A DNA stretch of 64,000 nucleotides from Micromonospora inyonensis (GTDB taxonomy: Bacteria; Actinomycetota; Actinomycetes; Mycobacteriales; Micromonosporaceae), in the NCBI RefSeq assembly GCF_900091415.1, contig NZ_FMHU01000001.1, forward strand, positions 1,860,001-1,924,000. The letters are read 5' to 3'. How positions within the stretch are numbered: position 1 is the stretch's first letter; each line of letters opens with the position of its first letter. Under the pieces are notes generated by a model. That model saw nothing but the letters and a program-made list of their open reading frames with translations, did no database searches and had not been told where the DNA came from. Position numbers and translations under genes: made by a program. This document shows positions 1,757 through 61,529 of this stretch, one piece after another.

Positions 1757-2661
1757 CCGGTCGACCACCGCCGGTCCGGTCCCCAGCGCCGGTGGTGGGT
1801 CGCGTCGGCTAGCAAGAGGGTTTGGCGGACCTCTCGGACTATGTGATCCGGGCGGAGGTAGAGGTCCCGATCGGTGAAGTAGCGCATGGTCCAGCCACGG
1901 GCCGACAGCCAGTTCATCCTGGCGCGGTCGCTCCGGAGGCGCTCGCGGGTCAGGTGGGACCCGCCGTCGTACTCGACGCCGACCTGGTGGGCGCGGTAGC
2001 CCAGGTCGAGCCGGAAGGTCCGGCGTCGCCACTCGTCGCTGATCCAGATCTGCGGCTCGGGGGGAGGCAGGCCGCCGTCGACGAGCACGAGACGTAGCTG
2101 GCTCTCCTGCCGGCACTCCGACCTGGCGTCCGCCAGGGGTACGAGTTGTCGGGCCTGACGCACGCCGCGCAACCGGTCGTGTCGCCTCACTTCCCGCTCA
2201 AGGTCACCCAGCCGGCAAGCGCCGGATCGCAGCGCAAGATCGAGGATGGGCAGAGCCTCGATCCGCCGTAGCGTGCGGGCCAGGTCGATGGCGCAGCGGG
2301 CGGCCGGGGCGACCGGTACGCCGGAGACCATCACCGGATCGGGTACCGGCAGCACCACCTCGTGAACGACCACCCCGGTGATTTTCGGGACGACCGACCC
2401 GGCCGGCACGATCACGTGCAGGTCATCCTGCGACACGTCACCGAACCCGTGTAGGTGGGCTCCGGTGTGGAAACCGACCACCGCCCCGGCCGGCAGCCGC
2501 ATGAGCATGGCCCGCAACTGCTCGCCAGGCTCGCGGTTCGAGCCGGTGTAGATCCCCCGGGTCACCCGGCGAAGGCGTCCGGCCTCGACAGCGTGCCGCA
2601 CGGCACCGCGGGTGTTGCCGGCGGAGCGCAACTCCGGATAGCGATACAGGTCATCGGCCAC
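1744..2661 (-). CDS. DUF559/Vsr-fold domain protein with AbiEi-like N-terminus
   Basis: About 305 residues from a GTG at 2661. The N-terminal part (ELRSAGNTRGAVRHAVEAG, then GRLRRVTRGIYTG) looks like the winged-helix domain of AbiEi-type antitoxin-like proteins. The C-terminal part contains VEYDGGSHL and RGWTMRYFTDRDL, typical of the DUF559 nuclease-like (Vsr-related) fold. Such proteins are abundant in actinomycetes and their role is unsettled. No partner toxin gene lies beside it, so an abortive-infection function is not supported. The frame is open up to 2742, but the residues before 2661 are glycine-rich, and a GAGG precedes the GTG. Confidence 0.75.
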   Translation of the reverse strand: MADDLYRYPELRSAGNTRGAVRHAVEAGRLRRVTRGIYTGSNREPGEQLRAMLMRLPAGAVVGFHTGAHLHGFGDVSQDDLHVIVPAGSVVPKITGVVVHEVVLPVPDPVMVSGVPVAPAARCAIDLARTLRRIEALPILDLALRSGACRLGDLEREVRRHDRLRGVRQARQLVPLADARSECRQESQLRLVLVDGGLPPPEPQIWISDEWRRRTFRLDLGYRAHQVGVEYDGGSHLTRERLRSDRARMNWLSARGWTMRYFTDRDLYLRPDHIVREVRQTLLLADATHHRRWGPDRRWSTGQAS

Positions 2662-2754
2662 ACCGCGATCCTCACCGCTCCTCCCACCCCCGACGCCCCA
2701 CCTGTGGACAACTCCGCCCCCTGTGGAAAACCCCCTGATCACCCCCCACCCCTG

Positions 2755-2940
2755 CTACCCCCACCCCACCCCACCCCACCCCCACCCCACCCCCGCCCCA
2801 CCCCCACCCCCACCCCACCCCCACCCCGTCGATCATGGACTTCGGGCACCGCCCAAACCTCACAATTGCCGCTAGTCAGGCGCCACGAATCCATGATCGA
2901 CGGAGTGGGGGGAGGGGGAGGGGGGAGGGGGGTGGGGTGA
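2755..2940. repeat. Low-complexity C/G tract enclosing a 13-bp inverted repeat
   Basis: A run of CCCCA units on the left (about 2755-2826) is mirrored by GGGGAGG units on the right (about 2903-2937). Between them a perfect inverted repeat, CGTCGATCATGGA at 2827-2839 and its complement at 2890-2902, encloses 50 bp. The structure could extrude a cruciform and the G-rich strand has several potential four-run G tracts. It fills the gap between the DUF559 gene and the decayed ATP-grasp gene, and reading frames in it are compositional artefacts. Confidence 0.75.
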
Positions 2941-3772
2941 GGAGCGGGGTGAGGAGGCGGGCCGGGTCGACGGTGGCGGGCCGGTCGCTGACCTGACCGT
3001 CGCCCAGCTCGATTACCCGCCAGACCCCGTCGTAGCGTGGTGCCAGATCGACCGTGACGAACGGCAGCGCCAGCGCGGCGACGAGCGGCGCGACAGTGGC
3101 CAGGTCGGGGTCGGCGACGGGTGGTCGGTCCGGGGTGTCCGGGTGCGGGCCGACCAGTACGCACCGACCGCCCAGCCACCAGGTCCGGACCTCCGCCGAG
3201 GTGAACCGCTCGAAGCGGCGCAGTACGAACCCGCCGACGAAGTCGTCCTCGCGCAGCTCGCGGAACCGGCGGGCCACCGCCCAGGCGGCCTCGGGGTCGT
3301 CCAGGTCGGGGATGAACGCCGCCTCGGCCCAGTGGTGCTTCATCGACTTGCAGTAGTCACGGAGCACCGCCGGGCCGTCGCCCAGCTCGGCGCGGGCCCG
3401 GTCGAAGGCCGCACGCGCGTCGCCTGCGGTCCAGGTCGTCGCGGGGGTCACCGACGCCAGTTCCGGGTACCAGCCGGGCAGTTCGTGCGCCCGCCGGTAC
3501 TGCGCGGCTCCGGTGCGCAGGGTGACGCCCCGGGCGGCCAGCGCCTCCGCGAAGGCCGGCTACCGCTCGGCGCGGAGCATCCAGCCCCGGTAGACCGCCT
3601 CGCCCGCCTCTGGCAGGCGCCGCAGCGCGGCAGACGCGTCGCCCCGGGCGAGCGCGTCGTGGTCCACCACCGCGACCGGTACGCCGGCCTCCTGGGCGGT
3701 CGTCGCCTCCGGCGCGAAGTGCGGGTCGGGACGGTGGGCGCGGAGCGGGTCGGCGGGTACCAGCAGCAGCAT
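2876..3772 (-). pseudogene. ATP-grasp (R2K/DUF4343-like) protein, broken by an in-frame amber codon
   Basis: One continuous minus-strand frame is cut by a single TAG at 3560-3562. Upstream it begins MLLLVPADPLRAHRPDP and runs to GWMLRAER; downstream it resumes with PAFAEALAARGVTLRT and continues through KSMKHHWAEAA, VRTWWLGGRCV and RYDGVWRVIELGDGQVS. The last motif is typical of R2K-type ATP-grasp proteins. No base has been gained or lost, so one substitution (probably TAC to TAG) explains the break. The C-terminus runs into the neighbouring low-complexity repeat, so the original stop may also have gone. An alternative start is the ATG at 3799. A sequencing error cannot be excluded. Confidence 0.75.
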
Positions 3773-3846
3773 CCCGCCATCCTCGCCGGACGCCGCCACC
3801 TCGGAGCGTGGTCACCGGCGGCCGCGTCGCGCCGGAGTCACGCAGG

Positions 3847-4166
3847 TCAGCTGGGGGCCTTGACCTGACCGTCGTAGGCGATGCTGCGCCACAGGTCGAA
3901 CTGACGGTCGTTGCCGACCAGGGGATTGCCGGCCGATGCGACGGCGGCGTGCACCTCCTCGTCGTTGCGCAGTTGCCGGAAGTAGTCGGGGATGTTCAGC
4001 GCGGGGTGCGGGTTGCTGGCACTGGAGGTCGCCGCGGTGTGGTGCCAGAGCACGCCGATCGGGTTGAACGAACTGCCGGCGAGCCGCCGAGCCAGTTGCC
4101 GTGCTCGACCACCTGGACCCCGGCGGTGCGGAGTACGTCGGCGAGCCAGGGAGTGGTGGCCATCAT
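3847..4166 (-). pseudogene. N-acetylmuramoyl-L-alanine amidase fragment, frameshifted
   Basis: The minus strand starts at MMATTPWLADVLRTAGVQVV and reads HGNWLGGSPA. It then needs a frame change near 4070-4085 to continue as NPIGVLWHHTAATSSASNPH, the zinc-binding entry motif of amidase_2-type peptidoglycan amidases. After PHPALN the sequence is no longer amidase-like (IPDYFRQLRNDEEV...) and stops at 3847, far short of a full domain. A frameshift plus an internal deletion fits best. The source could be a prophage or secreted lysin. The family call rests on a short motif. Confidence 0.55.
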
Positions 4167-4254
4167 GCCTCCGGCGGGTCGGCGCGGCGGCCGGTCAGCG
4201 CGCCAGGGTCGGCTGAGGATCTCTCGGCAGGCATGGCGAAGATCGTAAGGGATC

Positions 4255-4467
4255 GATGCGTTGTGGAGAGCGGGCATGTCCACCCGAGAGATCGCGCCCC
4301 GGCTGGTCGTGCCGGTGCGCACCGTCGAGAACCACCTTTACAGGATCAACACCAGACTGGGAATCAGCAGCCGGGCGGAACTCGCCGACGTGCTGGGCGA
4401 CTACCGGGATCGCCCGGATCGCGTGGGCGACGAGGGTACGTCGGAGCTGTCCGGTCCAGCGGGTTGA
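4255..4467 (+). pseudogene. LuxR-type HTH tail, 5'-truncated
   Basis: The peptide GMSTREIAPRLVVPVRTVEN followed by HLYRINTRLGISSRAELADV is the four-helix LuxR/NarL DNA-binding domain. Nothing upstream in this frame supplies a sensor or receiver domain; the DNA before 4255 belongs to the amidase remnant on the other strand. A 68-codon reading frame from an ATG at 4261 exists, but it is best seen as the surviving end of a larger regulator. Together with the two pseudogenes to its left it marks 2.9-4.5 kb as a decaying region. Confidence 0.6.
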
Positions 4468-4549
4468 CCGACTGGGGCCTACGGCGGCCTGGGTCACCCT
4501 GGTCGGAGGGGCGTGCCGGTGATCGAACGACCGACGTAGGCTCGCAGGT

Positions 4550-5740
4550 GTGAGTGTGAGCCGGGAGATCGACGACATCCTGCAGCGCGGCGCGGACGGC
4601 GGGCGGATCACGCCCGAGGAGGCGCTGCTGCTCTACACCGAGGCGCCCTTCCATGCCCTCGGCGAGGCGGCCGACGCGGTACGGCGGCGGCGGTACCCGG
4701 ACAACATCGTCACGTACCTGATCGACCGCAACATCAACTACACCAACGTCTGTGTCACCGCGTGCAAGTTCTGCGCCTTCTACCGCGCGCCGAAGCACCG
4801 CGAGGGGTGGACCCACCCGACCGAGGAGATCCTGCGCCGTTGCGGCGAGGCGGTCGACCTGGGCGCGACGCAGGTGATGCTTCAGGGCGGCCACCACCCC
4901 GACTACGGCGTCGAGTACTACGAGGAGCTGTTCTCCTCGGTGAAGAAGGCGTTCCCGCAGCTCGCCATCCACTCGATCGGGCCGAGCGAGATCCTGCACA
5001 TGGCGAAGGTCTCGGGGGTGAGCCTGGACGAGGCGATCGCCCGGATCAAGGCCGCCGGGCTGGACTCGATCGCCGGGGCCGGGGCGGAGATGCTCCCGGA
5101 GCGACCCCGCAGGGCGATCGCGCCGTTGAAGGAGTCGGGCGAGCGCTGGCTGGAGGTCATGGAGCTGGCGCACCGGCAGGGGGTCGAGTCGACCGCCACC
5201 ATGATGATGGGCACCGGCGAGACCGTCGCCGAGCGGATCGAGCACCTGCGGATGATCCGCGACGTCCAGGACCGGACGCAGGGCTTCCGTGCCTTCATCC
5301 CGTGGACGTACCAGCCGGAGAACAACCACCTGAAGGGGCGCACCCAGGCGACGACCCTGGAGTACCTGCGCCTGGTCGCGGTGGCCCGGCTCTTCTTCGA
5401 GACCGTGCCGCACCTCCAGGCGTCCTGGTTGACCACCGGCAAGGATGTCGGCCAGCTGGCCCTGCACATGGGGGTGGACGACCTCGGCTCGATCATGCTG
5501 GAGGAGAACGTCATCTCCTCGGCCGGCGCGCGACACCGGTCCAACCTGCACGAGCTGATCGGGATGATCCGGTCGGCCGACCGGATCCCGGCGCAGCGGG
5601 ACACCCTCTACCGTCGGTTGACCATTCATCACACTCCGGCGGACGACCCGACCGACGACCGCGTCGTGTCGCATTTCTCGTCGATCGCCATTGCGGGGGG
5701 CGGGGTCGGCCGTCCGCTTCCTCTGGTTGATGCCCAGTGA
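4550..5740 (+). CDS. mqnC: Cyclic dehypoxanthinyl futalosine synthase (radical SAM)
   Basis: A 396-residue radical SAM enzyme. The cluster motif CVTACKFC lies near residues 68-75, preceded by RNINYTNVC and followed by MLQGGHHPDYG and HSIGPSEI, all characteristic of MqnC. The enzyme cyclises dehypoxanthine futalosine, a middle step of the futalosine route to menaquinone. Start is the GTG at 4550; a second in-frame GTG at 4556 is possible. The last 20 or so residues are glycine-rich and less conserved. It stands alone, but menaquinone methylation, reduction, prenyl-tail synthesis and complex I genes follow within 23 kb. Confidence 0.93.
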   Translation: MSVSREIDDILQRGADGGRITPEEALLLYTEAPFHALGEAADAVRRRRYPDNIVTYLIDRNINYTNVCVTACKFCAFYRAPKHREGWTHPTEEILRRCGEAVDLGATQVMLQGGHHPDYGVEYYEELFSSVKKAFPQLAIHSIGPSEILHMAKVSGVSLDEAIARIKAAGLDSIAGAGAEMLPERPRRAIAPLKESGERWLEVMELAHRQGVESTATMMMGTGETVAERIEHLRMIRDVQDRTQGFRAFIPWTYQPENNHLKGRTQATTLEYLRLVAVARLFFETVPHLQASWLTTGKDVGQLALHMGVDDLGSIMLEENVISSAGARHRSNLHELIGMIRSADRIPAQRDTLYRRLTIHHTPADDPTDDRVVSHFSSIAIAGGGVGRPLPLVDAQ

Positions 5741-6023
5741 ACGGTCGGTAATCATCGCCCTTTTCGGGGTCGACCGAACGGGTAGTGGTTGTCCGGCGGG
5801 AGGGTTGATCGCTGTGACCATTGGGACCACTGTGAACTGCGGATCCGTCCGGCAAGCGCATCAATTCGGACAATCCTTAAGTGATTCTTAGGTAAGCAGC
5901 TCACCCCGGTTTCCCGAAGGGGTGGCGGGGGCGATCGTCGACCGATAACGTGCGGTCGGCGGCCCCGGGCGGACGTTGTTCCCGGGCGCATCCTCTTCCC
6001 GTCTTCCATGGGGGAACGTCTTC

Positions 6024-7217
6024 ATGATCTTCCGTAACCGAGCGCTCACGCGGGTCGGCGCTGCCGCGCTCCTGGCCTCCGGCGTGTTCACCGCGCTCGG
6101 CGTTCCGGCCCGGGCCGCCGGCACCGAGACCGACCTCTCCCTGGACGTCGTCGGCACCCGGGTTGCCGCCGGTACCGCCGGGAAGGTGGCCTTCGCCAAG
6201 GTCACCAACAACGGCAAGAACACCCCGAGCGCCCTCTCGATCAACGCGGACCTGTCGAAGCTGGACACCAACAAGGCCGTCCCCGTCCCCGCGATGTCCG
6301 ACTGCGACCTGGACGTCGCCGGCTGGACCTGCGACGTCCCGGCAGAGCTGGTGCCGGGTCCGGGCGAGACGACCGAGATCCCGGTGGTGCTCTTCAAGCA
6401 GGACGACATCGAGGGCACGTACAAGGCGTCGGTCACCTTCACCATCACGTCCACCGACGACACCGACGCCAGCAACAACAGCAGGACCGCCACGATCGAG
6501 CTCACCGACGAGAGCGGCCCGGACCTGCTCGTGCTCGCCGGTGACGTCAAGCAGGCGGTCAAGGTCGGCGAGGGTGGCGAACTCAGCATCGTCGGCGACC
6601 TGCACGCCGGCCAGACCGGGATGCTCCAGTACTTCGTGGTCAACCAGGGCGACCAGGCGACCGCAGGTCTCACCGTCACGGTCAAGCTCCCCAAGGGTGT
6701 GACCTTCCCCGAGGTGGAGCCGGATTGCGAGTACGACGCGGCAAAGACCGAGGCCGTCTGCACCTACCGTCAGCTCCCGTTGGTCCCGGCGGACGAGGAC
6801 ACCGGCGGGAACGACGACGTCATCTCCGGCGGTGACTTCTTCCACCTGCTCTCGGTCGGCGCGGACGTCAAGGCCGGCAGCCTCACCGGCGGCAGCGTGA
6901 CCGTCGAGCCGATCGTGGCGAAGAGCGCCCTGCGGGGCACCGCCCGGGAGGCCACCAAGTTGCCGGAGAACATGACCGGCATCCGGGCCACCGACGTGGA
7001 CGCGAGTGACAACACCGACGGCTACGCGGTCGTCGTCGCCGCCAAGGGCGGTTCCGGTGGCGGCGACGGGGGCAGCCTGCCGGTGACCGGTCCGCAGGCG
7101 GGCCTGATCGGCGGTATCGGCGGCGCGGTCCTGCTCGCCGGTGGCGCCATGTTCCTGGCCGCCCGTCGTCGCCGGGTGGTCCTGGTGACCCCGAGCGACG
7201 AGAAGTCGACCGTCTGA
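6024..7217 (+). CDS. Secreted cell-wall-anchored protein with LPXTG-type sorting signal
   Basis: A 397-residue exported protein. A signal peptide (basic start [10 protein letters not shown], hydrophobic core, ARA-AG cleavage region) is followed by two Ig-like/CARDB-style beta domains ([11 protein letters not shown] and [13 protein letters not shown]). The C-terminus has LPVTG near residues 352-356, a glycine-rich membrane segment and a RRRR tail, the classic sortase signal. No catalytic motif is seen, so a surface structural or adhesive role is an inference. The ATG at 6024 is preferred over an ATG at 5976 because it places the signal peptide at the N-terminus. A perfect hairpin terminator follows. 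The 283-bp gap upstream (5741-6023) is AT-richer and presumably holds the promoter, but no -35/-10 pair is clear. Confidence 0.85.
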
Positions 7218-7263
7218 CGGTCGTCCTCAACCGGCCCGTGCGGGCCGTCTACATAACGCACCG

Positions 7264-7301
7264 CAGTGGGGGCGGGATGGGTGACCATCCCGCCCCCACT
7301 G
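7264..7301 (+). terminator. Perfect 17-bp stem-loop terminator
   Basis: CAGTGGGGGCGGGATGG at 7264-7280 pairs perfectly with 7285-7301 across the loop GTGA, followed by TTT. It ends the LPXTG-protein unit and isolates it from the menG unit. Confidence 0.8.
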
Positions 7302-7378
7302 TTTCCAGGCGCGGTCCCGTCCGGACCGCGGACCATCCCGCCCGGCCTTCGTGTGCACCGGGCTGGCAGAGTGGGGGA

Positions 7379-54746: not shown

Positions 54747-55840
54747 TCACCTGCGAACATGCTTCGAAGCCCCTCGATCGGAGTGATCACGGCCACACCC
54801 CGTAGGCATAATTTCGCAGGGAGTGGAGGTTGCGCCACTCGACGTGAGCAGGTCTGCTACGGCATGCTTGTACTTGCGACGACTTTTCGCATGTGTACAA
54901 CAACACGGACCCTCGGCGGTTGCACCCCCCGTAACCGCTGAGCGAGTTCGGCTCAATCCCCCCCGGAGCCGAACTCCCCGACGACCCCCGTCTCCCCCCG
55001 ACGGGGGTCGTCCCTTTTTCCGCTCCGGTTCACGTTCCTGGTCAGCGCCACCTTCTGCCCCCGATCCACGCTCCTGAGACGGCGTGAGAGGCCGGAAAGT
55101 CAGCAGATCGTCAGCGAAGGTCTGCCGGACCCGGTCGGCGTAGCCGTCGGGCGTGTGGGTGTACCGGTCGAGGGTCGTCGACGCCTGCTCGTGCCCCATC
55201 ACCCGCTGGACGATGTTGATCGGTACCCCGTCGGTAACGAGCCACGTCGCGTACGAGTGCCGCAGGTCGTGGAAGCGCAGCCCGCCATACGCCGCCGCCG
55301 CTACCTGGGCCACGGCCGCCGCCTCGCTGGGAAACTCCGCCTGGTGCTCGGCGCCGGCCCGGTCGGGCCACTGCGCCACCCACCGGCCCGGCCCGATCTC
55401 GGCCACCCGACCGAGCAGCCCCGCCCGCACCAGGGACGGCAACCACACCCGCCGCCGGAAGTTCGACCGGCGTTGTGGCCCGCCGTCCCGATCGGCGAAG
55501 ATCAACGCCCGCCCGTCCGGGTCGGTCGCCCCGCGCCGCTGGCGCAACGCGTCCGCCAGGAACCCCGGCAGCGGCACCGTCCGCAGTCCCGCCCGGCTCT
55601 TCGGGTACGTCCGAAGCATGATCCCGGAGTGTGTCTCGATCGCCACCTGGACGACCCGCAGGACCCCCTGATCCAGGTCGACGGCGGACCAGGCCAGGCC
55701 GGCGCACTCACCCCAGCGCAGTCCCGCCCCGGCGGCGGCGCAGACGATCGCCCGGTGCTCTGCCGGAACAGCGGGAAGCAGCCGACCGAGGAAGGTCTCC
55801 CGACTGATCGTGCTCGGCCGCGCCTCACCTGTGGGGCGAG
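54747..55840 (-). pseudogene. Integrase (tyrosine recombinase) C-terminal part, N-terminus deleted
   Basis: The catalytic domain is intact: Arg in GAGLRWGECAGL, H-x-x-R in FHDLRHSYATWL, GHEQASTTLDRYTH with the Tyr nucleophile. The arm- and core-binding domains before TISRETFLGRLL are missing; upstream of about 55840 the DNA is replication-initiator sequence in another frame. After the Tyr, over 130 further residues are read, Arg/Gly/Pro-rich and containing hairpins, unlike the usual short integrase tail. The integrase is therefore truncated at its N-terminus and probably non-functional. Confidence 0.85.
54944..55012. terminator. Two tandem inverted repeats inside the integrase tail
   Basis: GAGTTCGGCTC at 54944-54954 pairs with 54966-54976. 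Immediately after, GACGACCCCCGT at 54980-54991 pairs with 55001-55012 and is followed by CCTTTTTC on the plus strand, a rho-independent terminator pattern. No plus-strand gene leads into it, so it may mark the former element boundary. Confidence 0.5.
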
Positions 55841-56752
55841 TCGGCGTTGCAGCTCGACCGCTCCGGCGTACTGGACGTTCCAGCCGGCGGCCCGGCGGAC
55901 GTTCTGCCACCACCGGTCGAGGACACGCGCGAAGTGGATCGCGTCGAGAGCGGCGCGACGGTAGTCGTAGCTGGTCGGATCGACCGGGGTGCCGAGGAGG
56001 TCATCGTGTGGCCCATGCCGCTGCCCGCACTCGCACGGCGCGACGTAGGCGCCCCGCCGGATGTGGGAGTGCACCGGCCCGTGCGAGCCGAGCGTCAGCG
56101 TGACCAGCATCGACGGCCGGTGGGTCTTGCCGGACCGCCCGGAGTAGGCCCGGCCGACGGTGCGCGGGTCGACGGGCAGCCGGGGCAGGTCGGGTGAGTC
56201 CTGCCGCCGTCGGGTCGACCGCTTCCGGCGTGGCCGCTCGTCGCGATCCTTCGGCGTCAGGTGACCACGGAGGCTGGTTTCGGCGAGTGCCTCGTCCAGT
56301 TCGGCTATCGCGGCGTCGACGTCGGCGATCTGCGCGGCCCGCTGGTCGGGGTGCATCGGCTGGTAGTTCAACGCCTCACGTTCGAACTCCAGATGCGCCC
56401 GCACGCGGACCAGGGCGAGCGCGTCCTCACCGGGCCGGTCGGGTTGTACGGCGGGTTCGTCGGCGAGGTGCCAGCCTTCCCGGATCTGCTGGATACGCAG
56501 CCGCCGTCCCCGCTCGGCGCAGGGCTTGCACTTCACCGCGAGGGTCGCCCCGCACGGGACCTCCACCACCTCGGTCAGACCGGTGACGGTGTCGATGCGC
56601 CGCAGGGCGAGCGGGCGGACACAGACGCCATGCTGTTCGGCGAGCTGCTTGAGGGCTTCCTTGGCGAGGGGTTGGCGCATCCGGGCCGCCCGCGACCCTG
56701 GCCGAGGCTCCTCGGTGGCCGGGGTCGACGGGATCAGTTCGAGTTGACTCAT
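55830..56752 (-). pseudogene. RepSA-like replication initiator, C-terminus deleted
   Basis: About 305 residues of an AICE replication initiator. A zinc-finger-like pair (VKCKPCAERGRR) and the basic segment RPRRKRSTRRR are followed by THRPSMLVTLTLGSHGPVHS and YDYRRAALDAIHFARVLDRW, which belong to the RepSA family. It then reads QYAGAVELQRRLAP and changes abruptly to integrase DNA in a shifted frame. TGTGGGGCGAG at 55830-55840 is shared by both sides of the join. ATG start 56752 overlaps the DUF2637 stop by 4 bp. Rolling-circle replication should be lost. Confidence 0.85.
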
Positions 56753-57252
56753 CGGCCGCCCTCCGAGGCGAACGACGACCCGTTACGCGGGACGAACGCC
56801 GCCGCCGACACCGGCACCAGACCCGCACGCCGGACCGGCATCACCGGCTGGATCGGTTCGACGGTCACCGCTTGGCCGTCGCCGTCCGGCTGGTCGACCG
56901 TCACGGCCTGGTCGCCACGCTCCCACTGATCAACGGTCGCCGTCCCGTCGGTGTCGGTGTGCGCCTGGTCGTCAACGACCTCGGGAGGTACAGCGGCCCA
57001 ACCGCCGTCGTCGGCCGGCTTGTCTGCCCGGGGTGCGGCGACGGGGGTCGGGGTGCTGGAGAAGACGAGTTTGGTCAGGCCGAGGAACGCCAGCGCGGGC
57101 ACGGCCGAGAGCAGCCACCCGGACAGGCCCGGTTTCGCCACCGCCAGTTGCGCTGCCAAGGAGAGCGCGACAGCAGCGACAAGGAGGAACATGGGGTAGC
57201 CGATCGGTCCGCCGGTGCGGCGTCGACGCCGGATGGTCAACAGCGCCGCTAG
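56749..57252 (-). pseudogene. DUF2637 membrane protein, 3' part
   Basis: The 167 codons from LAALLTIRRRRRTGG onwards encode helices YPMFLLVAAVALSLAAQLAV and GWLLSAVPALAFLGLTKLVF and a long acidic Thr/Val-rich tail. The missing N-terminal 60 codons are at 59919-60102, beyond two insertion sequences. The IS end supplies an ATG (M-T-H-G) in frame before LAALL, so a truncated protein could be made. Stop overlaps rep. Confidence 0.85.
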
Positions 57253-58306
57253 GCCGTGTGTCATAAGTGCCCGTGGTCCTGGCTGTGAGGTAGATCGGCT
57301 GGGCGTGTCGGTGATCGATACGCGGTGAGGTCTCCGGTAGATGGGTTATCGACCAAGACAACCATCTGCACGGAGACCTCGTGGCCAGCGTAGCGGTGAC
57401 GAGGCGGCACGACCTGACTGACGCGCAGTTTGCGGTGTTGGAGCCGCTGCTGCCCAGACCGAAGAAGGCAGGTCGACCGCCGAAGTGGAGCAAGCGGCAG
57501 CTCATTGACGGGATCAGGTGGCGGGTCCGCACGGGTGCGCCGTGGCGGGACGTGCCGGACTGCTACGGGCACTGGCGCACGGTGTACGGGCTGTACCGGC
57601 GCTGGCAGCGGGCCGGTGTGTGGGCGCGGATCCTGGCCGGGTTGCAGGGTAGGGCCGACGCGGTCGGGTTGATCACCTGGGACGTGAGCGTGGACTCCAC
57701 GATCGCCCGGGCGCATCAGCACGCCGCCGGTGCCCGCCGGGACAGTCACACGCAGGTCGAGCCGCCGGGCGGCAGTGACGCCGTCGAGCCGGCCGATCAC
57801 GCGCTGGGCCGCTCGCGTGGCGGTCTGACGACGAAGCTGCACCTGGCCTGCGAGCAGGGCCGCATGGTGCTGGCGTTTGTCATCACCGGTGGGCAGCGCG
57901 GCGACAGCCCGCAGTTCACCACGGTGCTGCACCGCATCCGGGTGCCTCGCCTCGGCGTCGGCCGACCCCGGTGCCGGCCGGACCGGGTCCTGGCCGACAA
58001 GGCGTACAGCAGCAAGGCCAACCGGAGCTACCTGCGCCGGCGCGGCATCGGCTGCGTCATCCCGGTCAAGGCCGACCAGGCCGCGAACCGACGCAAGAAG
58101 GGCTCGGCGGGTGGCCGTCCACCCGCCTTCGACCCCAGCGCATACCGGCAGCGTCACGCCGTGGAGTGCGGCATCAACCTGCTCAAACAGCACCGTGCCG
58201 TGGCCACCCGATACGACAAGCTCGCCGTGCGGTACGAAGCCACCGCCACCATCAGCATGATCGACATCTGGCTCCGACGCCTCGAACGGCACTTATGACA
58301 CACGGC
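57253..58306 (+). mobile_element. IS5-family insertion sequence
   Basis: A 1,054-bp element with 20-bp identical terminal inverted repeats GGCCGTGTGTCATAAGTGCC at 57253-57272 and 58287-58306, flanked by CTAG on both sides. The single transposase gene is intact. It lies inside the DUF2637 gene. Confidence 0.85.
57381..58298 (+). CDS. IS5-family transposase
   Basis: A 305-residue DDE transposase in one frame. N-terminal DUF4096-type helix-turn region ([40 protein letters not shown]) and the catalytic triad region: Asp in [13 protein letters not shown], Asp in [13 protein letters not shown] and Glu in [13 protein letters not shown]. The protein is intact, so the element may be active. The 5' non-coding part within the left IR holds its promoter. 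GTG start at 57381. Confidence 0.92.
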
Positions 58307-58310
58307 CTAG

Positions 58311-59918
58311 CTTGATCTTTAACCTGTGCGGCGCGGCCGGGGATTGGCCGATTTCTTCTTCGAAGAGGTTGTCTTCCTGGTCGCGTTGCTGGTGGCGATG
58401 TGGACGTCGTAGCGGCGGGTGGGATGGCGGTTGGGTCGTCCGGGTGGGCGGCCGGGTCCTGGTCGGGTGGGTTTCGGTGCACCGGCGGGACAGGGGCTGT
58501 TGGCGCGCAGGTGCCGAAATCCGCGGCGGACCCGGGCGGGGGTGAGCCGTTCGGGTGGGGCTGGTCGTTCCCAGGGGCGACGCAGGTCGGAGGCGAGGGG
58601 GCGGGCCAGCCGTAGCTGGGTGTAGGCGGCGATGATCAGCCAGGTCCAGCGGTCGGCGGCGTGCGGGTCGCGCAGTTTCGGCACGCACCAGCCGAGGGTC
58701 TGCTTGAGCAGCCGGAAGGTGTGTTCGATGTCGAAACGGCGTAGGAACGCCTGCCACAGCAGGTCGATCATGGTCGGGTCGGGGTTGTCGCCGCCGGACT
58801 GGTGGCCGAGGCCGGTGAACCACCACAGCCAGACCGGCTTCGCGGTCGCGCCGGAGGGCAGCCGTTGCACGTCCAGGCGGATGAGGGTGCCTTCCAGGAT
58901 GGGCAGCTCAGGGCAGTCGGCCCAGGCGGCGCGGCGGGTCAGCCTGGGGTGCAGCCGGTGCCAGGCACGGGCGGTCGCGGTGCCGTAGAGGCGGGTCTCG
59001 GTCACGGTGGTGACGTCCGGGGTGCCCCAGCTGGCCGGGTCGCCGAAGATGAACTCGCTGCCATGCCGTGGTGGCCGACCGCACTTGGGGCCCGGTATCC
59101 ATGGCCCCGGCGGGCGGCGCAGCACCCGGTCGGATCGCATCCGGGCCAGGACGCGTACCGGCAGGTCCCGTAGCAGCCAGGCCAGCCGGGCCGCGTCGTA
59201 GCCGGCATCCATCACCACCCAGACCGCCGGGTCACCAGGCTGCCAGTGCCCAGCGGTGATCAGTCGGTCCACCACCGCGCGCAGCTGCTCGGCGGTGACC
59301 GCGGCCAGCTCGGTGCCCGGGGCCAGCCGGACCGCGTCCAGCGGCGCGGTCCACGAACTGCGCCCGGACTCCAGGGCCACCACAAACGAGTACGGCCAGC
59401 CCGGCACACCGATGTGCTGGTCTTTGCCACGGCCGTAGGTGTGGCACAGGATCCGCTCCGGCACGGTGTGCGCTTCCGGCCGCAGCCAGCAGGTGACATC
59501 CACGGCCAGGACGATCCGCCCGTCGGCGGCCCGTGGCATCGGCATCGAGGCCACCACGGTCCGCAACCGTTCCACATCGATCCGACCGGCGCCAAGCGCG
59601 TCGTACAACGCGCCGTGACCTCGACGGTGCTCCGCCACCAGGGACAAGGCCGGCAGCGACCGTACCGGCCCGTCCGCGCACAACACCGCGTCGGCCAACT
59701 CGAACAGCGCATCAGCTCTGGCGCTCAGACAGCGATGCAGTTCCGTACGGAACGTCGCGAGGTCCCCAACCGCGCTTCCACGCGCGGCGTCATGCACACT
59801 GATCATCCCGCAGCCCTTGGTCCTGATCTTCTTCCCTAGACAAGAGGAATGATCGATCAAGGGCTGCGGCCATGATCGCCCGGGGGGCGATGCAACCGAC
59901 CCCAGGTTAAAGATCAAG
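58311..59918 (-). mobile_element. CTAG-targeting insertion sequence (IS701-like by target)
   Basis: A 1,608-bp element with 16-bp identical terminal repeats CTTGATCTTTAACCTG, read inwards from 58311 and from 59918. It is flanked by CTAG at 58307-58310 and 59919-59922. The 4-bp CTAG duplication is typical of IS701-type elements; the family is not certain. It abuts the IS5 copy. Confidence 0.8.
58319..59806 (-). CDS. DDE transposase of the CTAG-targeting IS
   Basis: A 495-residue transposase from ATG 59806 (MISVHDAARGSAVGDLATF). Catalytic Asp residues appear in IVLAVDVTCWLRPEAHT and WVVMDAGYDAARLAWLL, with the Glu in FDIEHTFRLLKQTLGW. The C-terminal basic tail (RPGPGRPPGRPNRHPTRRYD) resembles nuclear-style DNA binding. 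It appears intact, with no stop or frameshift. The frame extends to 59956 but across the element end. Confidence 0.88.
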   Translation of the reverse strand: MISVHDAARGSAVGDLATFRTELHRCLSARADALFELADAVLCADGPVRSLPALSLVAEHRRGHGALYDALGAGRIDVERLRTVVASMPMPRAADGRIVLAVDVTCWLRPEAHTVPERILCHTYGRGKDQHIGVPGWPYSFVVALESGRSSWTAPLDAVRLAPGTELAAVTAEQLRAVVDRLITAGHWQPGDPAVWVVMDAGYDAARLAWLLRDLPVRVLARMRSDRVLRRPPGPWIPGPKCGRPPRHGSEFIFGDPASWGTPDVTTVTETRLYGTATARAWHRLHPRLTRRAAWADCPELPILEGTLIRLDVQRLPSGATAKPVWLWWFTGLGHQSGGDNPDPTMIDLLWQAFLRRFDIEHTFRLLKQTLGWCVPKLRDPHAADRWTWLIIAAYTQLRLARPLASDLRRPWERPAPPERLTPARVRRGFRHLRANSPCPAGAPKPTRPGPGRPPGRPNRHPTRRYDVHIATSNATRKTTSSKKKSANPRPRRTG

Positions 59919-60102
59919 CTAGGGGCAGCAGTTCGGAGATCGCGGCGTTGGCCCACCCGAACCAGTCCCCGGTACCGGCTGGGGAGTTCGCCATGGTCCA
60001 GTCGTGGACGTGGGTGAACGACGCCGCCCCGGCGAGCCCGCCGACGACGAGGACGATGAGCACCAGGATTACGTCCTCTACCCGGTCCGCGTGCGTCTTC
60101 AC
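59919..60102 (-). pseudogene. DUF2637 membrane protein, 5' part
   Basis: Sixty codons (MKTHADRVEDVILVLIVLVV, then GLAGAASFTHVHDWTMANSP and GDWFGWANAAISELLP) give the first membrane helix and the conserved loop of DUF2637. After LP the frame reads CTAGCTTGA into the insertion sequence and stops. Joining this to 57252 restores one 227-codon gene without a gap. The start overlaps the FtsK stop (ATGA). Confidence 0.88.
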
Positions 60103-61529
60103 TCGGTCACCTCCTGGTCGTCGTCGTTGCGGTCGTGCCGTTGGTAGTCCCGGCCCAGTTGCCGGATGTCGTCATCCGTGAGGTAGGAAAACCGCACCCG
60201 AGCGGGTTCCCGGACGCCGTCGAGGGCGACGTAGCCGACCCCAGGCAGGGAGTCGGGGATCCGGTCGCAGAGAGCGCCCCGGTCGCGTGCGCCGTCGCCG
60301 AGGACCATGTGCACCTGTTCGGCTTCGGTCAGCCGCAGGCCGATGCGGGTGGGGAACAGGTCCCGGAACGGCAGCACGTCCTTACGCGGGTCCTGCAACG
60401 CCGCGATCACGTGCACTCCGACCGCGCGGCCTTGAGAGAGGAGCAGGCCGAGGGCTTCCTTGATCCGGTCGCGGACCTTCCGATCGGTCAGGTACGCGGT
60501 CAACGCGGCCAGCTCGTCGACCACCAGTACCAGGAGCGGATCCTCCACCGACGGCACATGCTGGCGGGTGACCCCACGCAGCCGGGCGGCCCGTAGCCGC
60601 ATGCGCTTGACGGCCTCTTCCAGGACGCCGGCCATGCCGTCCGGGTCGTCGTAGACGAATCGCGCGAACAGCGGGGCACCGGCGGCGAGTTCCATGCCGC
60701 CCTTGGGGTCGAACGCCCACACCTCCACCAACCCCGACCGGATACCACCGGCCAGAGAGCGGATCAGCGACCAGAGGACCGAGCCCTTCCCCGCATTCGT
60801 CGCCCCGGCGACGAGCACATGACTACCGGCTAGGCGCAGCCGGTACGGCAGCCCGTCCTCCCGCACCCCGAGTGCCAGACCGTCGAGGTCTGGCACGTCG
60901 GGCACGGGCAGCGGATCGATGGTCGTGGCAAGGGGATCGCGGCGTAGGAAGCGGACCACCACCCGATCCGGGCGGCTGGTCGACCGGGCGTGGCCGTCGC
61001 GGAGCCGGAAGGCGTACGCGAGGCGTTCGGCCGCCTGTGCCCAGTCGTCGGGGATCTGGCCGGGCAGCATCCGCACCGTCAGCTCATCGCCGAACCGGTC
61101 GCAGCGCACCCGCAGCAGCCGGGGCACGTACCGGTCACCGCCGAACACCGTCGCCAGACCGCACGTCGCCATCACCGACGCCCACCGGACCCGGTAGATC
61201 AGCAGCGCCCGCACCCGGGCGACCATCGGATACCAGCCGAACCGCAGCCATGACACCGGATGCCACCGCCACCAGGCCAGGCAGACGGCGGCAACGGCCA
61301 GTGCGACGGAGGCGAGGAGCAGGCCGCCATACTCCAACCGAAGCCAGAGAGCGAGCCCGGTCGGGACGGTCAGCCACCAGTACCGCACCGCCAGGACCGT
61401 CACCCGGACCAGGCCGCGTAGGAGCCACCAGAACACCAGCAGCCAACCCGGTACCCGCCACGCCGGCAGGCGCAGGTTCATCGGTGCTACTGGGATCTTG
61501 TCGCCGGGGATGATGTTGATCAGAGGCAC
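60099..61529 (-). CDS. FtsK/SpoIIIE-type DNA translocase (TraB/TraSA-like)
   Basis: A 476-residue translocase. Three membrane helices lie near residues 30-110. The ATPase domain has Walker A AGATNAGKGSVL (near 238-249) and Walker B LLVLVVDELAAL, then the ring-domain motif SQGRAVGVHVIAALQDPRKD. In pSAM2-type elements a single such protein moves double-stranded DNA between hyphae. Intact here, so intermycelial transfer would be blocked upstream by Rep/Int loss instead. GTGC-type overlap with the zinc-ribbon gene and ATGA overlap with DUF2637 place it in one operon. Confidence 0.9.
   Translation of the reverse strand: MPLINIIPGDKIPVAPMNLRLPAWRVPGWLLVFWWLLRGLVRVTVLAVRYWWLTVPTGLALWLRLEYGGLLLASVALAVAAVCLAWWRWHPVSWLRFGWYPMVARVRALLIYRVRWASVMATCGLATVFGGDRYVPRLLRVRCDRFGDELTVRMLPGQIPDDWAQAAERLAYAFRLRDGHARSTSRPDRVVVRFLRRDPLATTIDPLPVPDVPDLDGLALGVREDGLPYRLRLAGSHVLVAGATNAGKGSVLWSLIRSLAGGIRSGLVEVWAFDPKGGMELAAGAPLFARFVYDDPDGMAGVLEEAVKRMRLRAARLRGVTRQHVPSVEDPLLVLVVDELAALTAYLTDRKVRDRIKEALGLLLSQGRAVGVHVIAALQDPRKDVLPFRDLFPTRIGLRLTEAEQVHMVLGDGARDRGALCDRIPDSLPGVGYVALDGVREPARVRFSYLTDDDIRQLGRDYQRHDRNDDDQEVTE

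What the first reader, a model, noticed from the sequence alone, without database searches (positions are those of the whole stretch)
56749..60102. Two insertion sequences used the same CTAG and precise removal rebuilds the DUF2637 gene
The sequence shows CTAG at 57249, 58307 and 59919. The IS5 copy fills 57253-58306 and the second IS fills 58311-59918, each flanked by CTAG. Deleting 57253-59922 rejoins GAA CTG CTG CCC CTA GCG GCG CTG, that is ELLPLAALL, with no frame change. The two insertions therefore happened one after the other at one site, and the second probably targeted the duplicated CTAG made by the first.
Basis: seen in the sequence. Interest (0 to 1): 0.7.

Follow-up and report, generated by a model that had tools for sequence, protein, structure and literature searches.

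The report
Two mobile elements, one CTAG site
Two unrelated jumping elements landed one after the other on the same rare four-letter DNA word, CTAG, and split a gene of an old mobile island; other unrelated elements in the same genome use that word in the same way and form trains joined by one CTAG.

Summary
An IS5-family element (IS-A) and an NF041680 (IS701-like) element (IS-B) lie end to end, separated and flanked by CTAG, inside a gene of a decayed actinomycete integrative element. In 29 of 29 examined homologues the gene is unsplit at this codon; none has CTAG there. Corrections: IS-A duplicates TA, not CTAG, and rebuilds CTAG through its own G...C ends; the order of the two insertions cannot be read here.

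This is not a single accident. The census of the genome has 29 full CTAG/YTAR-bounded elements of the IS5, IS630, IS4, IS982, IS701 and NF041680 families. They and some fragments form 10 junctions across a shared CTAG or TTAG (11 with a degraded neighbour). One IS4 copy has a 10-bp duplication spanning the end of one neighbour and the start of the other, so it landed in an existing IS|CTAG|IS junction. A Streptomyces plasmid carries four different IS in a row.

CTAG is about 3.5-fold depleted. The excess over random CTAG use is large, but would vanish if only 5-10% of CTAGs tolerate insertion. In congeners IS-B ends rarely touch an IS end (1 of 31).

The parts
59919..60102 (-). 5' piece (61 codons) of the split DUF2637-like gene
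   Evidence: tblastn to 29 of 29 homologues, contiguous with the other piece
56749..57252 (-). 3' piece of the split DUF2637-like gene
   Evidence: homology starts at residue 5 or 6 of the 171-aa ORF, i.e. at the CTAG; the first 4 residues come from IS-A
57249..57252 (.). left CTAG; its TA is the left target duplication of IS-A
57252..58307 (+).
   Evidence: 6 full copies in the genome, TA duplication
57253..57271 (+). left terminal inverted repeat of IS-A (19 bp perfect)
58288..58306 (-). right terminal inverted repeat of IS-A
57381..58298 (+). IS5-family transposase, 305 aa
   Evidence: NF033580, 256 bits, cut-off 110; PF13340, PF01609
58307..58310 (.). middle CTAG shared by IS-A and IS-B
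58311..59918 (-). IS-B, NF041680 (IS701-like) insertion sequence, 1608 bp, 4-bp duplication
   Evidence: 5 full copies; duplications CTAG x4, TTAG x1
58311..58326 (+). terminal inverted repeat of IS-B (16 bp perfect)
59903..59918 (-). terminal inverted repeat of IS-B
58319..59806 (-). NF041680 transposase, 495 aa
   Evidence: NF041680, 556 bits, cut-off 440; PF13546
59919..59922 (.). right CTAG, target duplication of IS-B
60099..61529 (-). FtsK/TraB-like gene of the host integrative element
   Evidence: PF01580; weak NF041214 TraB, below cut-off
55502..56752 (-). truncated RepSA-type replication initiator of the host element
   Evidence: PF20199, profile 3-219 of 438
54747..55913 (-). tyrosine integrase of the host element, overlapping the RepSA reading frame; probably N-terminally shortened
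   Evidence: PF00589, two stretches, best one profile 126-168 of 172; the shortening is inferred

Best explanation
Two independent transpositions at one CTAG. An IS5-family element that duplicates TA (within YTAR) and an NF041680 element that makes a 4-bp YTAG duplication both chose the same CTAG in a dispensable gene of a decayed integrative element. Each insertion leaves a YTAR at both of its borders, IS-A because its own ends are G...C and IS-B because it duplicates the word, so the next CTAG-seeking element can land there. In this IS-rich genome six transposase families share the word, with cutting geometries of 2, 4 and 10 bp where readable, and IS|CTAG|IS trains grow. Shown: boundaries, duplications of A, B and E, homologue continuity, recurrence in the genome, one resolved order (an IS4 copy landed between two IS). 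Inferred: that rarity of CTAG plus tolerance of insertions beside an IS concentrates the events. Not shown: order in the window, or any active recruitment by IS ends.
For: Other copies fix the ends and duplications. Homologues: 29 of 29 contiguous. Different end pairings (A right|B left in the window, A left|B left at C2:2038932, A right|B right at C1:2232826) exclude one pair copied as a unit for those three. Further junctions A|C, C|B, B|C (two), C|F, D|E, E|F. The IS4 element E has perfect 10-bp NNNCTAGNNN duplications in 3 of 4 copies; at C1:1530041 it is GCACTAGACG, the last 3 bases of D plus CTAG plus the first 3 of F. CTAG: 73 in 441,241 sampled bases against 259 expected from trinucleotides. 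Simulation with 1,146 sites and 33 insertions gives mean 0.89 junctions and 0 of 4,000 runs with 9 or more. A control IS that mostly fits TNA duplications has 0 of 38 termini abutting these elements. The same architecture elsewhere: L138 has IS5-like|IS-B-like|IS630|IS701 in a row.
Against: In a genus sample only 1 of 31 IS-B ends abuts an IS end (L291), and one more (L272) lies inside another IS-B-like element; 0 of 8 resolved IS-A-like relatives abut a panel element. So trains are not the rule for these families. Simulation with 115 usable sites (10% of CTAGs) gives mean 7.2 junctions, with 26% of runs at 9 or more and 2.6% at 12 or more, so plain site limitation can explain the excess without any preference. 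Clustering within 2 kb is only marginally stronger for CTAG-type elements (14 of 27) than for three other IS groups (8 of 32), p=0.058. Two junctions share the same end pairing (C right|B right at C1:2237191 and C2:1070511) and may be copies of one event. Several partners are fragments.
Confidence: 0.85

Rival explanations
1. The pair moved together as one composite unit into the gene.
For: Outer CTAGs flank the pair as they would a unit. In Paractinoplanes atraurantiacus two IS-B-like copies with different left flanks have the same right neighbour sequence (L118, L125).
Against: Within G000 the A|B junction uses three different end pairings and each IS also occurs without the other. IS-A and IS-B have unrelated ends and belong to different transposase models.
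Confidence: 0.06
2. Active end-targeting: the NF041680 transposase prefers YTAR next to IS5/IS630 termini rather than YTAR in general.
For: In G000 4 of 5 full IS-B copies and both fragments abut another element of the census. 9 of 26 loci from named genomes and plasmids have a full or partial IS with transposase sequence directly across the spacer.
Against: 1 of 31 ends in a genus sample. The plasmid loci may come from IS-dense replicons (not measured). The genus targets are mostly TTAG (21 of 31).
Confidence: 0.08
3. Safe haven only: many families share a CTAG preference, but most genomic CTAGs are harmful to hit, so survivors pile up beside existing IS. This is a narrower form of the best explanation, not an exclusive alternative.
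For: Simulation fits with about 57-115 usable CTAGs (means 11.9 and 7.2). Other IS groups also cluster to some extent (8 of 32 within 2 kb).
Against: The insertion studied here is itself inside a gene. Copies of A, C, D, E and F without a census neighbour exist elsewhere.
Confidence: 0.5

Closest known systems
IS630 family targeting of TA in CTAG (Shigella IS630; recalled, the Tenzen papers were not read; ISY100 passages seen in PMC2170065, for TA duplication)
   Same: the 4 full IS-C and 3 full IS-D copies (both IS630) have CTAG on both sides
   Different: Here the word is shared with five other transposase families and reused
IS5 family with CTAG or TAG repeats (passages of PMC10379815, which cites CTAG from earlier studies but itself found 8-bp repeats; passages of PMC10017437)
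   Same: IS5-family element at CTAG
   Different: Several copies here show that only TA is duplicated
IS701 family, in almost all members exactly 4-bp duplications (passages of PMC2266710)
   Same: 4-bp YTAG duplication; weak hits to IS701 models
   Different: IS-B belongs to the separate NCBIfam model NF041680 and scores far below the IS701 cut-offs
[quoted passage not shown]
   Same: IS5 with TAG and IS701 with nTAG repeats lie near each other in a different phylum
   Different: The passages I saw give no shared-target explanation and no multi-family trains
Tandem insertion of ISPsy19 and MITEPsy1 (CTAG or YTAA) in ISPsy17 (passages of PMC3189936)
   Same: Two mobile elements in tandem, one of them CTAG-seeking
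   Different: A single case; ISPsy19 is listed with a different 3-nt target

Membership tests
IS5 family (IS-A) | IS5 transposase model above cut-off | tested here: met
   NF033580, 256 bits against 110
IS5 family (IS-A) | Terminal inverted repeats and a short TA-containing duplication | tested here: met
   19-bp repeats; TA on both sides of 6 of 6 full copies
NF041680 (IS-B) | Score above the curated cut-off | tested here: met
   556 bits against 440
IS701 family (IS-B) | IS701 model above cut-off | tested here: not met
   NF049999 60 bits against 170; NF033540 31 against 150
IS701 family (IS-B) | 4-bp duplication | tested here: met
   CTAG x4, TTAG x1 in 5 of 5 full copies
DUF2637 (split gene) | PF10935 above gathering score | tested here: not met
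   Best but sub-threshold, 15.6-16.7 bits against 22.8, in 3 intact homologues
Actinomycete integrative and conjugative element (host island; definition recalled) | RepSA-type initiator, FtsK/TraB-like transfer gene and tyrosine integrase together | tested here: met
   PF20199, PF01580 and PF00589 within 54747-61529
Actinomycete integrative and conjugative element (host island; definition recalled) | Complete module | tested here: not met
   Initiator is a partial match, profile 3-219 of 438, and one gene is split; att sites not sought; no tRNA in the window

The most novel reading that the evidence does not exclude
CTAG acts as a self-renewing shared docking word in IS-rich actinobacterial replicons: at least six DDE transposase families, with cutting geometries of 2, 4 and 10 bp where readable, converge on it and every insertion regenerates it. 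IS borders thereby become targets for other families and multi-family IS trains accumulate in genomes where the word is otherwise depleted, perhaps because CTAG kinks easily (recalled, not tested).
Probability: 0.5. Interest if true: 0.6.

Novelty: new variant of a known kind. Interest (0 to 1): 0.45.

Why it matters
If the shared-word rule holds, it explains how IS islands and composite arrangements of unrelated IS nucleate without homology, and gives a testable reason why avoiding one tetranucleotide might protect a genome. It also warns annotators: a CTAG on both sides of an IS is not proof of a 4-bp duplication, and adjoining IS that share a spacer can look like one composite element.

Tried and rejected
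Rejected: IS-A duplicating CTAG; a single composite insertion (different end pairings); an 'IS-end-targeting' habit of IS-B, which looked strong on own-genome and plasmid loci but failed in the genus sample (1 of 31). Not settled: insertion order in the window. Unverified neighbours not counted: the IS5-like end beside IS-B at C2:3291205 (no partner end found), and end-like sequences in L118, L123, L124, L125 and L137 (no transposase hit). The neighbour at C2:2040544 matches an IS701 end at 14 of 16 bases but has no transposase hit; I list it apart. G005 L027 has a degenerate ATAG spacer and is not counted. L129 and L130 showed no shared spacer. The viral-contig scan returned no relative of IS-B. 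An intact homologue of the split gene against plasmids: no match.

Rows dropped or limits: 15 of 30 listed plasmid rows (228 records matched) were fetched, leaving out mainly near-duplicate sister records. The census covers places found with two transposase models plus the DNA copies of A, B and C. From the NTAN scan I took into the 29 only element groups that I judged to be CTAG/YTAR-bounded. I left out by judgement a 288-aa-ORF IS (some copies read TTAG/CTAA in that scan, but TNA duplications fit 14 of the 19 copies read), a 426-aa-ORF group with ambiguous ends, and single poor matches. IS families outside the two models were not sought. The neighbour panel has 10 or 11 transposases, so other neighbours could be missed. 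The second IS5-like match in L009 lies over 200 bp from the resolved element and was not counted as abutting. The CTAG density comes from 19 stretches of 20 kb and the window without the pair, not from the whole genome. The simulation's 33 insertions are my tally of 29 full elements and 4 fragments.
Full report
WHAT IS THERE. The window is G000:C1:1860001-1924000 of a 6.92-Mb genome in four contigs. Its name is not given; 4 of the 11 IS-B relatives named are from Micromonospora and others from related genera, so a Micromonospora is my inference. CTAG stands at 57249, 58307 and 59919. Between the first two lies IS-A: one 305-aa IS5-family transposase (NF033580, 256 bits, cut-off 110) and 19-bp perfect inverted repeats. 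Between the last two lies IS-B: a 495-aa NF041680 transposase (556 bits, cut-off 440) and 16-bp perfect repeats. They split a gene next to a truncated RepSA-type initiator, a tyrosine integrase and an FtsK/TraB-like gene, i.e. in a decayed actinomycete integrative element.

THE HOST GENE. I searched the 3' piece against the genus: 123 of 151 genomes have a relative. In the 29 homologous loci examined (L087-L115; 30 were fetched, one being the window's own) the 5' and 3' pieces align side by side, without gap, in 29 of 29. The residue at the join is the leucine of the CTA codon in the window and varies among the homologues. So the gene was once continuous at exactly this place. In 29 of 29 homologues there is no CTAG at the join, so the allele that was hit had the word while the examined relatives do not. 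The DUF2637 label is only the best sub-threshold match (15.6-16.7 bits, cut-off 22.8, in three intact homologues).

BOUNDARIES AND DUPLICATIONS. IS-A has six full copies in G000. Their outer tetranucleotides are CTAG/CTAG (three), CTAG/CTAA (two) and TTAG/CTAA (one). A 4-bp duplication fails in three of six; a TA duplication fits all six if the outermost G and C belong to the IS. A relative in G021 has CTAA/TTAG, which again fits TA with the outermost A and T inside the element (L009). IS-B has five full copies with 4-bp duplications: CTAG four times, TTAG once.

RECURRENCE. IS-A and IS-B abut across a 4-bp spacer in three places in this genome: the window, C2:2038932 and C1:2232826 (the last with TTAG and an IS-A fragment). 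The end pairings differ each time. A third element, IS-C (IS630; NF033545, 279 bits, cut-off 100), lies between an IS-A fragment and IS-B at C1:2236061-2237190 with CTAG on both sides, beside IS-B fragments at C2:1070511 and C2:1958156, and beside an IS982 element at C2:1959289. I then listed IS630 and DDE_Tnp_1 transposases in the genome, fetched the surroundings and looked for inverted-repeat pairs bounded by NTAN. The groups that I judged to be bounded by CTAG/YTAR were A (IS5) 6, B (NF041680) 5, C (IS630) 4, D (IS630) 3, E (IS4) 4, F (IS982) 5, G (IS701) 1 and H (IS982) 1, 29 in all; families are. By my tally, 13 of 29 share a spacer with another of these elements or a fragment of one. There are ten junctions with near-exact neighbour ends (0-1 mismatch in 16), two of which (D|E, E|F) have E's three extra duplicated bases beside the CTAG; one more has a degraded IS701 end (14 of 16; no transposase hit); one is unverified.

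AN ORDER THAT CAN BE READ. Element E makes 10-bp duplications centred on CTAG: CCTCTAGGGG, GCACTAGACG, CGACTAGAGG in three of four copies; the fourth has unequal flanks. The second copy sits at C1:1530041-1531553, and its duplication is the last three bases of D, CTAG, and the first three of F. E therefore landed in a D|CTAG|F junction that already existed. This shows directly that a spacer shared by two IS serves as a target. In the window the two possible orders give identical letters.

OTHER ORGANISMS. Of 26 loci with IS-B relatives (11 named genome loci; 15 plasmid loci), 9 have a full or partial IS with transposase sequence directly across the spacer: L117, L126, L131, L132, L133, L134, L138, L140, L141. 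The L126 junction belongs to a second IS-B end in that contig, not to the transposase match itself, and the IS-B end in L141 is diverged. Five more (L118, L123, L124, L125, L137) show an IS5-like end without a transposase hit and are not counted. L138, a Streptomyces plasmid, holds four elements in a row, IS5-like, IS-B-like, IS630 and IS701, each separated by one CTAG (the IS5-like one scores 122 bits, below the cut-off of 140, with NF033581).

RESULTS AGAINST A SPECIAL HABIT. A pattern search for the IS-B end plus YTAR found it in 59 of 160 genomes of the genus. In the 29 loci held outside G000, one per genome, 31 ends were examined with the 11-transposase panel. One abuts an IS end (L291, IS5-like) and one more (L272) lies inside another IS-B-like element. 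In G000 it is 7 of 12 ends, counting the degraded neighbour (1 of 31 against 7 of 12, Fisher p = 0.0002). Of 19 IS-A-like loci in relatives 8 had resolvable ends, and 0 of 8 abut a panel element. Trains thus are not a habit of these families everywhere; that they follow IS load is my inference.

HOW MUCH IS CHANCE. CTAG occurs 73 times in 441,241 sampled bases against 259 expected from trinucleotides and 1,128 from base composition, or about 1,146 in the genome. Random sequential use of 1,146 sites by 33 insertions gives 0.89 junctions on average, and 0 of 4,000 runs reached 9. With 115 usable sites the mean is 7.2; 26% of runs reach 9 and 2.6% reach 12. With 57 sites the mean is 11.9. So the excess over all CTAGs is strong, but a restriction to 5-10% tolerable sites would suffice. 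As a control, an IS with 21 copies whose flanks fit TNA duplications in 14 of the 19 copies read never abuts these elements (0 of 38 termini). Clustering within 2 kb is 14 of 27 for elements A to F and 8 of 32 for three other groups, p = 0.058.

MECHANISM. The best-supported account is two sequential, independent transpositions that share a target word. IS-A restores the word because its ends are G...C around a duplicated TA; IS-B restores it by duplicating four bases; E by duplicating ten with CTAG in the middle. The rarity of the word and the harmlessness of sites beside an IS would then concentrate later insertions. Active recruitment by IS ends is possible, but the genus sample speaks against it.

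COMPARISON. From passages that I saw: almost all IS701 elements make duplications of exactly four bases and IS4 elements about ten (PMC2266710); ISY100 of the IS630 group duplicates TA (PMC2170065); CTAG is cited as the IS5 repeat by a paper that itself found 8-bp repeats (PMC10379815). In Deinococcus radiopugnans IS5 elements with TAG repeats are, with one exception, 'positioned close to' IS701 elements with nTAG repeats (PMC10017437), an earlier sighting of a similar neighbourhood. In the listings of my ten searches of the open library and the passages I saw, no paper states cross-family sharing of CTAG. I saw passages of nine papers only, and most subscription journals are not held.

VERDICT. 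The individual event is ordinary; the multi-family use of one rare word, with one order proved, is the interesting part.

Noticed in passing
L138 (Streptomyces sp. NBC_01435 plasmid NZ_CP109493.1), about 1986-7326: Four IS of different families (IS5-like, NF041680-like, IS630, IS701) in a row, each joined to the next by a single CTAG.
   Followed up: partly
L211:3878-8040 (G000:C1:1528377-1532539): IS630-D | IS4-E | IS982-F train; the 10-bp duplication of E (GCACTAGACG) spans the ends of D and F. D lies next to the start of an IS701-like transposase relative (54%).
   Followed up: yes
window 54747-56752: RepSA gene truncated (profile 3-219 of 438); its reading frame runs on into another frame of the integrase gene, as if a deletion had fused initiator and integrase.
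   Followed up: no
L042:2822-4378: Group II intron-type reverse transcriptase/maturase ORF whose last codons are the end of an IS-A fragment (968-1054), which itself abuts IS-B across TTAG.
   Followed up: no
L044, flanks of 710-1763 (G000:C1:886709 copy of IS-A): This IS-A copy sits in the loop of a 10-bp perfect inverted repeat (GGCCAGCGAT/ATCGCTGGCC), perhaps a terminator.
   Followed up: no
G000, 21 places, e.g. L207, L231, L253: Abundant 288-aa-ORF IS with ends AGGTCGCGCGGAA; flanks fit TNA duplications in 14 of the 19 copies read; used as control.
   Followed up: partly
L263-L292: In the genus sample the IS-B target is mostly TTAG (21 of 31 ends), in G000 mostly CTAG.
   Followed up: partly
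L272: One IS-B end lies, across TTAA, inside coding sequence of another IS-B-like transposase (residues 421-439).
   Followed up: no
L118 and L125 (Paractinoplanes atraurantiacus): Two IS-B-like copies with different left flanks but the same IS5-like sequence on the right, both near contig ends; might be a pair that moved together or a repeated target.
   Followed up: no
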